A stretch of DNA of 64,000 nucleotides, from the NCBI GenBank assembly GCA_032207245.1, contig CM063509.1, positions 2,199,220 to 2,263,219 on the forward strand, given 5' to 3'. Made by a program: the position numbers and the translations under genes. The notes under the pieces were generated by a model. That model did not search any database and was not told where the DNA came from. It was given only the letters and a program-made list of their open reading frames with translations. Source of the DNA: Pardosa pseudoannulata (Eukaryota; Arthropoda; Arachnida; Araneae; Lycosidae). Shown here piece by piece: positions 53,501 to 62,500 of this stretch; within the stretch, counting starts at the first letter, position 1; each line of letters begins with the position of its first letter.

Positions 53501-56500
53501 TATTTATTTTCAGGGGAAGCAAAATCTGATAAAGGTTCTGACTCTGAAAAAGGTAATAGCAATCAGTTCAGTTACAATTTTTGAAGGATTATATTTTTAT
53601 TATATTTATTTACTAGCATATAGCCCGTCATATGACGGGATCCGTAAAATTTTTAATTTTTCAGAATTGTAAAGAACCCCATGAGGCAGGTAAAAAAAAA
53701 TGGTTTGTTTTTTTGGCCGAGAATTACTTTTCAACAAAAATAATCGATTAAAATTATCACATATGAACTTAATATATTATTTAAGTCAAATAGGAAAGAA
53801 AATTATTTATGTAATATATCTAAGTTTAGTGATAAAATGTATGGAAATATTGCAGAAAATATTTAAATAATTTAAAATAAGAAATGATTCAATGAGATGG
53901 TTAAAGGAATGATGTCATAAGGCTAGAAAAAATTTGTTATTTTTACCTATTTATTATGTAATAAATTAATAAATTTAATTGCTTGCTCTTAAAATGAGGC
54001 TTGATATAATGGCATTAAACGCTGGAAAATGGGACGGGGTGGATTTCGAACATTTTAAAGAGAACAGTATTTTTCGCTCTGATACGAAGCTTATTCATAC
54101 TAATTTACTTCAGAATCAGATCTATAGTTTAGGAAAAGGTAAAACTTTACTAGCTTTGAATTTTGCAAACCCTAACTCATCAAAAATCCAATATGGATGC
54201 TCTATCCATTCCACGTCCAACAGCATCATAACTTCGAGGACGATGGACAGATATCTTAGGCTATTATTACATTACGAGAAGAAAGTTTAAGGATACACAA
54301 CATAAAATGTTTATGTGGCCATGGACATCCGTAAAACAATACGTGAATTTAATAAAATGAAAATTATAAAAAGTTGAAAAAATAGTAAAAATTTATTTTA
54401 AAAAAATAAAACGACTTTAAAATTAATAAAACAATTTTCGGAATAAGAATTTAAAAGAAAAGGCAAAAAATATTAAATTCATTAGACATTAAAAAAAAAT
54501 TGGCTACGTCGGGTATAGAACCGTCAACCTGAGAAGTACAATGATCGGCGGACATTCTACCAAATGTACAACACCTGGACGTTGTGAGCGAACTAATTAG
54601 AGTATATGAAGGTTCAAGTAGAAACAATCCAGAAATTTAAATATTACTCTCTGCTTTTTCCATCCTATCAAGAATGAATTTCGTATAGAATAAGAGGAAG
54701 GATATGGTTTGAAATAATAGTATTAAACGCTCGAAAAGGGGGGATGGGGTGGATTTCGAACTCGCTTTCAATTTTGCTAACCCTAACTCATGAAAAATCC
54801 AATATGGATGCCTGTATCCATTCCAGGTACAACCGCTTCAAAAATTCGTGTACAGACAACTTAGGCTATTATTATATAGGGGATTTATTATTTCTTTATA
54901 GATATTTATGAATGTTTGACCAACTGTTTTATTTCAGTCCTTAACTTTAAAACTTTAATTTATAATATGAAAGCTAAGTGTTATTGTGATTTATTTCAAA
55001 AAAAGCTTGTTCTTAATAAAATTATATAATCTATATCTCTTATATATACTTAAGTTGATGATATGGCATACTTGTGGGGGAGAAAGAAGTATTGTGTAGT
55101 ATTGATAGTTTGTTATATATTTTATTTCAATTCTTATATTTTCTTGAGCTCTTTAACTGAATTTTTAAATTTGCAATTCAACAATATTTCTTAATTAGAT
55201 TTAAAATTTAAAAGTTGTGAAACTTTTTGAAATTATACCTTAGTTTGAAAGATCACTTAACACTAGATTGCCCGAGATTTCTTGTATACCTATATTGCCC
55301 AAAAACAGGCAAAATGACTGCATTGTGAAAAATTAACAAATATGTAAAGAAATTTGTTTAAAATTAATTTTTAATAATAATAAAGGAGGGCGGAAGTAAC
55401 TACAATTATTCATAAACCCATTTATATGTTATAGAAAATGTCACCAAATTCTAAGAAATTGTGTCATTATATTTCATAATTGTTTTTCTAATTGAAATTA
55501 AAAAACAGTCAAAATGACTGCTTTGGGCAATCTAGTGTTAATGTGATAACCACAATACACATTTCACAAACTAGCATATAGCCCGTCATATGACGGGATT
55601 AGTAAAATATTTAATTTTCCAGAATTGTAAAGTAATCTAGGGAGCAGGTTAAAAAAATGGTTTGTCTTTTGGCTCAGAATTATCTTTCAACAAAAATAAT
55701 CGATTAAAATTCACATATGTACCTAATCTATTATTCAATCCAAATAGAAAAGAAAATTATTTACGTAATATCTAAGATTAGTGATAAAACGTATGGAAAT
55801 AATGCAGAAGATATTTAAATAATCTAAAATAAATGATTAAATGAGATGGTTAAAGGAATGATGTCATAATGCTAGAAAAAAATTGTTATTTTTACCTATT
55901 TCTTGTGTTAAATTCATAAATTTAATCGCCTGCTCTTAAAATGGGGTTTGATATAATGTCATTAAAAGCTCGAAAATGAGGACGGGGTTTATTTCGAACT
56001 TTTTAAAGATGACAGTATTTTTGCTGTGATACGAAGCTTATTCATACCAATTTATTTTAGAATCGGATCTATAGTTTAGGAAAAGATAAACTCGCTTTGA
56101 ATTTTGCTAACTCTAACTCAATAAAAATCCAATATGGATGCTCTACCTATTCCAGGTCGAACCGCTTCATAAATTCGAGGACAGATAACTTAGGCTATTA
56201 TTACATTACGAGAAGAAAGTTTAAGGATACAACACATGAAATGCTTATGTGGCCAGGGATATCCTTAAAACAATACGTGAATTTAATAAAATAAAAATAA
56301 TAAAAAATCACAAAAAGTTGAAAAAACAGTAAATATTTATTTTAAAAACAATAAAACAACTTTAGGAATAAGAATTTAAAAAAAAAAAAAAAAGCAGAAA
56401 ATATTAAATTGAGACATTTAGAAAAATGCTTCGGGGACAGAACCGTCAACCCACAATGTACGATGATCAAACGTGCAGACACTCTAATGAACGTGCCACG

Positions 56501-59500: not shown

Positions 59501-62500
59501 GATTCTTCTGCAAAGAGAGAAAATTTTATGAAAATTTAAAAAATAATGAAACATCTTGTCAAATTTTGTATTTAAAACTGTACATCTGATTAAGCTTCTG
59601 TTGCCGATAATTTTCTTTCATGGAGATATAATTTAAAAAGTTGATAGACACCTTAAAATGTCCTTAATTTTCACTTTCATAAACCTGCATGAACCATGTG
59701 TTGTGTATAATTTAACGATCTTTGCTTTACAAAATTAGGATCCTTTTTACTATAAATATGTGTAAATATGTTGCATTTATTTTATGTAACTTATAATGTA
59801 GTTTAGATGTTTAAGGAAAGAAATGATTATTTTTTTCCTGTACAGGCTTGGAAAGCTAAAGTATTATTTAATTATTTTTATTAGATAATGAACAACAGAG
59901 TAGAGCATCAGATTCTGACAGAGAAGAGGTTGTCCATTCAGGTACGTAATTAAAAAAAAATGCTGGCAAAATTTATTTTCTACAAAGTTGATTTATCTCC
60001 AACATTCAGAAATAATTGTTTACTCAATGTCCTTGCTTTAATATTTACTAAGCTATAAATTGTGAAAATGTTTTTAATTTAAAATTAATTCATTTTAAAG
60101 AAGTAAAAAAAAAATTTTTTTTAGACTTTCTTTGTAATAATATAATGGGCATTTTATATTTAACATGACTGTAATTATGTAATCATTTTTATGATAATTT
60201 TCCGTAATCTTATGCAAACTTGATATATATATACACTGAAGAGCCAAAACATTATGACCACCCCTACATTTTGCAACAAACTCTCCTGGATGACGTGGAA
60301 GGCACATGATCAGGTGGAAGTGGTATTTAAATGCTGCTGGCGAGTCTGAAAATTATTCTTTCACTGACTTCTATGTGTGGTGGGAAAGGCTGTGGATGTA
60401 AGTAATTTTGATAAAGGGCAAATTGTAATGACTCGAAGGCTCAGAACAAATATTTCCAAAACTTGTGGTTGCCTTGTGGGTTGTTCGCAATCTACAGTTG
60501 TTAGTACTTATTGCTAATCTTACTGACCTATACTTTTGGATTAGTGTGCAATAAGACATGATAAATCAATAAACAATAACAATTTTATTGTCATAACAAA
60601 AAAAACAACGCATAAACACTTAAATTACAATTCTAACACATCCTAAACTAAGCTAAACAGAAATGAACTCTTACAAGAGGAGGGGGGGGAAACAACCTGA
60701 TAAACATAACACATCTCTCGAGGCTATATATGTACTTATTAATTTGCATAACACTCACTCCAGAGCCAAGTATGCCACTTAATTCCCCCGATTGGCTGCG
60801 ACATCAAAAGTAGGAAGGGGGGGGTTTCTCGGGATCGGAAGGAAATTAAAATTAAAATAACTGAAAATAAGCGATTTTAAGAAAAATAAGTTGGCAGTTA
60901 AATGAGTTATTTTATGCTTAAAATTCTGAAAATGCTAACACTTATGCAAAGTGGATGGATGAATGATAGTGAAACCAGCAGTAGACGACATGGTGTTGGA
61001 CATCCACATGCTATCAAAGAAAAAGGTCGTTGGAGACTGGTATGCCATGGGAAGTCAGCTCCAAGACCACCCATTCGCACTATCTCGGATTTGCGTCACC
61101 GTTGCTTAAACATCTGGTACAATCTGTCTCCTGCCATCTACCAAGGACTTGTGGCATCCATGCCAAGGCGGGTGGAAGTTGTGTTGCATGCCAAAGGTGG
61201 GCCAACTCGTTATTGACAGGTGGTCATAATGTTTTAGCTCTTGAGTGTATATGTGTGTGTGTGTGTTATAGAATGAAATGTACAACAGGGTTTTGAAGTC
61301 ATGGCCAGTTGGCGTGATAAAGCAAGACACCGTTTCAGTTACGAAAGATATTTATTCCCACGGTGTCAATTGGATTGGTTCCCACTTCATTATAAGAACA
61401 TGAAAATTCTATCCTCAATAGCATGCCACTCCTTTTTTGTTTGGAATGTTTTAAATTGGCCTCTAGGGCACTATAAAGTTTTAATTGATTAGACCTCTTG
61501 CTTGACAGCATGAACTGTAGCCCCAGTGGTGAGTTTAGATTAGGGGTTAAAAGGAGAAAAAGCAGAGAGAAGCAGGGTTTTTACCCGTAATTGTAGATTT
61601 GAAAATCCCTGAGAATTTTCTTGGATCATAATGAAGACTTTTGACTATAAATTTCATTCAGTACTGTTTATTGGGAAAAAATGGATATCCTATCAAACAA
61701 TAGTAGAAAAATTCATCCATAAACCGCACTCTTTTTGTTTTTTATTTAATAATTCATCAAGAATATATGTTAATTCTTAATTTTTATAATGTGAAGCGAA
61801 TTATTATTTTTTGAAAATTTATCGACAGTTTAAAAATAAGTATTAATTGAAGTCTAAAGAAAATAAAATTATATAAGTGATCTAAATTAAAACTTATATA
61901 TTATATTGGTCTGCAGCTCATTTTTTTTTTTTTTTCGTGTGAAAGGCTGCCCTAAGTAATCATTAAAAATATTTAAATGTGAAACCAATAGGTGTACAAT
62001 GTAGTATTATACTTAATAAAATCATTGACTTGAATTTCTTTTCTTAAATTTTTACTTTAGATAATGCAAGTCGAGCTTCAGGTTCTGGTAAGGAAGTGGA
62101 GCATTCTGGTAATAATTTAGTACAACTTATTTCGCTTTAATGATATATTTATATGTAACAGTAAAATCCAAAATTCTCCAAAACACTTTTACTTCCTTGT
62201 ACAGTACAACTTACTAAATCTGGAATCATTTTGGATGCTGCAATTCTTTATTTTAGAGGTTTTTAAATAACTTTAAAAAAATATTAAGCAAAAATAAAAA
62301 GTATTACATATATAAAAATAGCATATTAAGTAAATGTGAATGCATAATTTATTTAGATTAAAATTTAAACATTTCTTTTAATATCTGTTGCCTCAGATTA
62401 GGTTTGTTAGAAATTACTTTTTTGTGAATCCAGTATGCTGCCATAATTTCATATTTCAATATGAGATTCCAAACCTGATATTTAATGATTCTATCAGGTC

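What the first reader, a model, noticed from the sequence alone, without database searches (positions are those of the whole stretch)
53514..62108. Array of six symmetric, homologous mini-exons in the CTR9 tail
Exons 22-27 are 39, 45, 51, 57, 57 and 48 nt, all multiples of three and all bounded by phase-1 introns. Units 2 to 6 begin with Asp-Asn built on the split codon G|AT or G|AC, share a core of the form S-x-[GA]-S-x-S-[ED]-[KR]-E, and four of them end in His-Ser just before the donor. The pattern is best explained by repeated exon duplication. Any subset could be skipped without a frameshift, giving up to 64 possible tails that differ in the number of acidic Ser-rich units (casein kinase 2-like S-x-x-E/D sites). 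Inference: a modular, tunable phospho-acidic tail on a Paf1 complex scaffold. Human CTR9 has a comparable acidic tail, but I do not know whether its exons are built this way.
Basis: partly seen in the sequence, partly recalled or inferred. Interest (0 to 1): 0.75.

Follow-up and report, generated by a model that had tools for sequence, protein, structure and literature searches.

The report
Nine-mini-exon phospho-acidic tail of spider CTR9
In a spider, the disordered tail of the transcription protein CTR9 is written as nine small related exons that could each be left out without breaking the reading frame, but the transcripts seen from a related spider include them all, so the tail looks like a slowly evolving repeat array rather than a mix-and-match one.

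Summary
The six mini-exons are real, all multiples of three, all phase 1-1, and related beyond composition. All nine units and the end match in order seven proteins from transcript-sized contigs of a related spider. Similar tails occur in ten further spider proteins; three Trichonephila proteins differ as if by whole units. The combinatorial 'tunable tail' is not supported: 7 of 7 of those proteins include every unit, and mini-exon splice sites are not weaker than the others. Best reading: an old array of symmetric exons, mostly constitutively spliced, each coding one charge unit with casein kinase 2-type motifs in a disordered Paf1-complex tail, changing in number over evolution rather than by cell type. 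New member of a known kind (titin PEVK, troponin T).

The parts
8420..8467 (+). CTR9 exon 1 (start of the 31-exon gene model)
   Evidence: tblastn with P0001 and splice model
46264..46488 (+). exon 20, basic Lys/Arg-rich part of the tail (net charge +11)
49091..49260 (+). exon 21, Ser-rich mixed-charge part ending KKRRILDSDSD, phase-1 donor into the array
53514..53552 (+). mini-exon 22 (39 nt) GEAKSDKGSDSEK, first and most divergent unit
   Evidence: junction with exon 23 has an alternative split
57012..57056 (+). mini-exon 23 (45 nt) DNRNKSSDSEKEQQS
57170..57220 (+). mini-exon 24 (51 nt) DNEKSMKGSESEKETHS
58186..58242 (+). mini-exon 25 (57 nt) DNEKSSRGSGSEKEDGGHS; 83% identical to the matching unit of P0001
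59885..59941 (+). mini-exon 26 (57 nt) DNEQQSRASDSDREEVVHS; 74% identical to the matching unit of P0001
62061..62108 (+). mini-exon 27 (48 nt) DNASRASGSGKEVEHS; last unit inside the window. Three more units (54, 45, 48 nt) and the terminal exon GQDSDSD* follow outside it, at L002:3195-3248, 3340-3384, 5922-5969 and 6429-6451 (G000:C13:2265414-2268670)

Best explanation
A spider CTR9 gene (31 exons in my model) ends in nine tandem, homologous, symmetric phase-1 mini-exons plus a tiny terminal exon. Each mini-exon codes one Ser-rich, presumably disordered unit of 13-19 residues, typically D-N/x-E...S-x-S-E/D-K/R...H-S, with one or two S/T-x-x-D/E (casein kinase 2-type) motifs. Shown: the exon array, its internal homology, its order shared with a relative's transcript-like sequences, whole-unit length differences between proteins of congeners. 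Inferred: all units are normally spliced in; phosphorylation turns a weakly acidic run (net -1 to -5 per unit) into a strongly acidic block that follows the basic exons 18-20, and this charge pattern helps the Paf1 complex to partition into, or be bound at, elongating RNA polymerase II. Phase-1 symmetry lets whole units be gained or lost without frameshift, so tail length changes over evolution.
For: Exon map and phases. Array continues to nine units in the own genome. Chance tests. Order of all nine units against P0001: 0 of 2000 permutations as good. Seven of seven proteins P0001-P0007 (11 contigs in all, longest 3.85-3.95 kb, mRNA-sized) carry every unit. Removing whole units from T. clavata gives T. 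clavipes (1 unit, 3 mismatches in 145) and T. inaurata (2 units, 5 mismatches in 128). 59 of 68 units from ten spiders, this one included, hold S-x-S-[EDG]-[KR]; 23 of 37 Ser/Thr of this joined tail are S/T-x-x-D/E. Net charge per unit, basic exons 18-20. Mean donor score of mini-exons 7.4 against 6.8 for exons 1-21, tract 0.75 against 0.68, neither significant. The tail-region search gave 19 proteins: 17 spider or spider-like and two unnamed (only the 7975 candidates sharing most words were scored). [quoted passage not shown] PMC7915770 (passage) lists CTR9 T925 as candidate CK2 substrate; PMC11322608 (passages) reports CTR9 nuclear puncta.
Against: No RNA of this species was found (one search returned one Parasteatoda protein only). 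Assembled contigs favour the main isoform and can hide skipping. Exon borders in other spiders are inferred from proteins; the Trichonephila differences may be exons missed by annotation, and gap placement in repeats is ambiguous (MAFFT put the gaps elsewhere). Unit order against the other spiders is weakly or not supported (38 to 226 of 2000 permutations as good for seven; Parasteatoda 1337 of 2000; Uloborus against Nephila 1245 of 2000). Exons 29 and 30 lack S-x-S-[EDG]-[KR]. No test here of disorder, phosphorylation, condensates or binding.
Confidence: 0.65

Rival explanations
1. Combinatorial cassette array: subsets of the nine exons are skipped by tissue or stage, giving CTR9 isoforms with different numbers of phospho-acidic units, as in troponin T.
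For: All nine exons are symmetric and phase 1-1, so any subset keeps frame. Records named 'isoform X1' (Argiope, cluster of 6) and 'isoform X3' (Parasteatoda, cluster of 5) exist. Congeners' proteins differ as if by whole units.
Against: 7 of 7 proteins from the nearest relative include all units; they differ in a Ser/Lys repeat before the array and in single residues. Mini-exon splice sites are not weak. Symmetry also follows from duplication alone. The isoform records were not seen at exon level.
Confidence: 0.14
2. Intron gain into an older tandem coding repeat: the repeat arose as protein-coding tandem units and introns later entered the same site (mostly TC[AT]G|A) of each unit.
For: Exon flanks look unlike one another by eye, and the long repeats in introns 21-26 are mobile-element copies within intron 22. 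Other CTR9 tails hold acidic tandem repeats too, e.g. P0084 (hemichordate), exon structure unknown.
Against: Needs many independent insertions at one site; whole-unit differences among Trichonephila are easier with exon units. Not separable here without other species' genes.
Confidence: 0.2
3. Chance or low complexity: small Ser/Asp/Glu-rich segments with AG/GT borders.
For: The tail is compositionally biased (about a quarter Ser in relatives). The tick RS tail is more self-similar than the array; with overlapping draws from exons 20-21, 6 of 2000 reached the observed value.
Against: transcript-like sequences of a relative.
Confidence: 0.01

Closest known systems
Titin (TTN) PEVK exons
   Same: Long run of short, related exons coding a repetitive region; exon number varies among species by duplication and loss (PMC6469411, abstract and passages).
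   Different: Elastic muscle protein, many more exons, Pro-Glu-Val-Lys rich; here nine Ser-rich acidic units in a transcription elongation scaffold.
Fast skeletal troponin T (TNNT3) mini-exons 4-8
   Same: Small exons near one end of the protein; [quoted passage not shown] that they code a charged variable end and that 64 combinations are possible is recalled, not read).
   Different: Troponin T skipping is established; for CTR9 it is not, and the transcript-like sequences seen include all units.
Schistosome micro-exon genes (MEGs)
   Same: Central coding part of tandem, mostly symmetrical small exons (PMC4671649, passages: microexons under 36 bp, 26 of 33 symmetrical).
   Different: MEGs mostly code secreted proteins and have exons under 36 bp; these exons are 39-57 nt in a transcription factor gene.
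Metazoan CTR9 (Paf1 complex) C-terminal tails
   Same: Ser-rich and charged; the vertebrate-cluster and horseshoe crab tails are also acidic.
   Different: Unit-like tails came back only from spiders and, weakly, two unnamed contigs (capped candidates). Of the 120 listed CTR9-like proteins 29 have RS-rich ends, 63 acidic, 28 other; tick P0021, mussel P0025 and lacewing P0034 are RS-rich.

Membership tests
CTR9, Paf1 complex scaffold | TPR core homologous to human CTR9 | tested here: met
   PDB CTR9 chains, E down to 1.6e-101 with a 234-residue query joined from window frames; 84% identity to P0001 over 99% of the query
Array of duplicated symmetric exons (titin PEVK kind) | Exons homologous to one another | tested here: met
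   exon 22 weakest
Array of duplicated symmetric exons (titin PEVK kind) | Length multiple of three, same phase at both borders | tested here: met
   Nine of nine, phase 1-1, with the 39+45 choice for exons 22/23
Array of duplicated symmetric exons (titin PEVK kind) | Exon number differs between related species | tested here: inconclusive
   Unit number differs between Trichonephila proteins as if by whole units, but exon borders there were not seen and annotation may miss exons
Combinatorial cassette exons (troponin T kind) | Transcripts that skip subsets of the units | tested here: inconclusive
   0 of 7 proteins of a related spider lack a unit; no reads of this species available
Schistosome-type micro-exon gene | Exons under 36 bp | tested here: not met
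   Exons are 39-57 nt
Casein kinase 2 substrate | Phosphorylated S-x-x-D/E sites | not testable with these tools
   Motif only: 23 of 37 Ser/Thr in the nine joined units
Patterned charge-block tail (Lyons 2023) | Alternating charge blocks drive condensate partitioning | not testable with these tools
   Net charge +3, +5, +11 for exons 18-20, -2 for exon 21, -1 to -5 for each unit; the paper itself is not held, seen only as a citation

The most novel reading that the evidence does not exclude
Spider CTR9 carries an exon-coded rheostat: the number of spliced-in phospho-charge units (0 to 9) sets how strongly the Paf1 complex enters or is retained in elongation condensates, in a tissue- or stage-dependent way.
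Probability: 0.1. Interest if true: 0.78.

Novelty: new member of a known kind. Interest (0 to 1): 0.45.

Why it matters
A core RNA polymerase II elongation factor whose tail is divided exon by exon into motif units gives a natural series of tail lengths (five to nine units in the spiders I parsed by hand) with which the role of charge blocks in the CTR9 tail can be tested. It also shows how gene prediction can fail on such tails: the window reader lost three units and the true end, and some public spider models (for example Caerostris extrusa, which leaves the tail at a unit end) may have too; that last point is inference.

Tried and rejected
Solved-structure search with the tail: nothing at E up to 0.1. 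Pfam with the tail: nothing. Search for short proteins with this tail: one Parasteatoda fragment, no same-species RNA. Own-genome search for other copies of the array: three matches, exons 25-27 of this locus (E up to 10, 7 candidates scored); it missed exons 28-30, which are there, so it does not show that no other copy exists. A search for CTR9 core paralogues did not complete, so single copy is not shown. Weak splice sites, as cassette exons often have: not found (9 against 21 donors, p = 0.07 in the other direction; tracts p = 0.11). Unit order across distant spiders: clear only against P0001. Papers: 'CTR9' with 'microexon' gave two; of PMC12868714 I saw passages (deleting single human CTR9 alternative exons gives distinct transcription clusters; which exons is not said there), of PMC9125161 the listing only. 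'CTR9' + 'alternative splicing' + 'exon' + 'intrinsically disordered' gave one paper, on SPOC domains. So these two searches of the held library found no description of this array; papers outside it were not searched. Unit boundaries in other spiders were set by hand, so the counts of first and last residues there are partly circular and I do not use them; ten of twelve parsed-able spiders were used, T. clavata and C. extrusa only.
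Full report
What the sequence is. The window lies on contig 13 of a 2.4 Gb assembly. From 8420 on it carries a CTR9 gene: a 234-residue query joined from its frames matches solved CTR9 chains, and a rough spliced protein is 84% identical to a 1251-residue protein from transcript-sized contigs (P0001) and mostly 68-78% identical to the named spider CTR9 proteins listed, one row (P0011) showing only a short alignment. 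The source is therefore a spider; the species is not known to me.

The six exons. They are at the stated places with the stated lengths, all multiples of three, all phase 1-1, with AG/GT borders.

The array is longer. The spider relatives end in ...SD or ...SE after further units, not in ARQMVT (the broken C. extrusa model is an exception). I fetched 29 kb downstream of the window from the same genome and scanned it. Three more unit exons are there: DVEENRGSESEKEESAHS (54 nt), DNDAKRSESEHSAHS (45 nt), DAEKSSGESDKEAAQS (48 nt), each phase 1-1, and the terminal exon G|QDSDSD-stop, the best of 1243 terminal candidates. They match P0001's DAEENQGSESGKEGSVHS, DNETKRSDSERSHS, EAEKSCGESDKEAAHS and AQDSDSD in order. 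The 25 best of 1099 internal candidates between 62000 and about 92800 (scores 43 and up) all belong to these exons or exon 27. The array thus has nine units, exons 22-30 of 31.

More than chance. Scored against units of other spiders, the six exons stand above every other phase-1 symmetric open segment in the window: 42-76 against at most 30, among 450 candidates. Shuffles with composition kept, even with the first and last two residues fixed, never reach the observed similarity (0 of 2000; nine units). Exon 22 is the weakest member (65 of 5000). Controls that went the other way: segments of exons 20-21 allowed to overlap reached the value in 6 of 2000 draws, I think because the same stretch could be drawn twice; non-overlapping segments of exons 19-21 did so in 0 of 600. 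The tick RS tail is more self-similar than the array (600 of 600), as a simple repeat must be. Shifting all cut points shows the exon register is the best of 17, by a small margin (32.56 against 32.50 at a shift of three).

Is it transcribed? Seven proteins (11 contigs, longest 3.85-3.95 kb) tagged lgn (I take this to be the Logan assembly of public reads; recalled) are full-length CTR9 of what looks like one related spider. All seven carry all nine units; they differ in a Ser/Lys repeat before the array and in single residues. A tail search among shorter proteins found nothing of this species. So inclusion of the whole array as the main form is likely in the relative and inferred here.

Is it tunable? 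Nothing found supports it. Symmetry is what duplication gives anyway. The mini-exons have donors and tracts at least as good as those of the other exons. Combinatorial use stays possible, since assembled contigs hide minor forms.

How it evolves. A search with the tail region found 19 proteins among the 7975 scored: the seven, ten named spiders (Trichonephila clavata, T. inaurata, T. clavipes, Nephila, Larinioides, Argiope, two Caerostris, Uloborus, Parasteatoda) and two unnamed contigs. Taking whole units out of T. clavata yields T. clavipes (one unit) and T. inaurata (two units) with 3 and 5 mismatches; only whole-unit removals were tried, and MAFFT placed the gaps differently. The Caerostris extrusa model leaves the tail exactly at a unit end. 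These fit exon-sized units in those families too, whether the missing units are lost, skipped or missed by annotation. Unit order is clearly shared with P0001 only; with seven other spiders 38-226 of 2000 permutations do as well, with Parasteatoda 1337, and Uloborus against Nephila 1245. The exon flanks are not visibly alike, so the duplications are old, or introns came in later.

How it most likely works. Each unit is weakly acidic (net -1 to -5, sum -21) with one or two S/T-x-x-D/E motifs. Phosphorylation would make each more acidic. Exons 18-20 are basic (+3, +5, +11), so the tail runs from basic to acidic. That the Ctr9 tail has disordered charge blocks is stated in PMC13289920 (passage) with reference to Lyons 2023, which I could not read. 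CK2 action on CTR9 is supported only by one candidate site, human T925 (PMC7915770, passage), well before the end of the roughly 1173-residue protein. SPOC domains bound the Paf1 complex, though full-length RBM15 and SHARP did not (PMC9834408, passage); whether through this tail is unknown. CTR9 forms nuclear puncta in mouse cells (PMC11322608, passages). The functional steps for the spider tail are inference.

Verdict. Real, shared among spiders, larger than reported, of a known kind; the splicing-rheostat idea is open but currently disfavoured.

Noticed in passing
53612-54877 and 55570-56802: Two copies (79-93% alike in the pieces aligned) of a mobile element of about 1.3 kb, both inside intron 22, beginning near 'tagcatatagcccgtcatatgacggga'.
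   Followed up: partly
60230-61250: Element with terminal inverted repeats (gagccaaaacattatgaccacc ... ggtggtcataatgttttagctcttgag), mariner-like by eye, inside intron 26.
   Followed up: no
36326-36961: Long open frame that looks by eye like the RNase H part of a non-LTR retrotransposon, inside CTR9 intron 16.
   Followed up: no
tails of P0008-P0011, P0013, P0018, P0122, P0123: Araneoid CTR9 has a second repeat before the array, KKRR[IV]VSDSGSESGGS-like, several times; the window's exon 21 has about one copy.
   Followed up: no
P0043, P0084: Hemichordate CTR9 tails carry copies of a different acidic repeat (ANEQSDNESGGQAS-like), so repeat growth in this tail may have happened more than once.
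   Followed up: no
62743-62850: Good acceptor, short open frame (ARQMVT*) and AATAAA close by: possible alternative last exon.
   Followed up: partly
51765-51846: 43-nt tandem repeat (1.9 copies) in intron 21.
   Followed up: no
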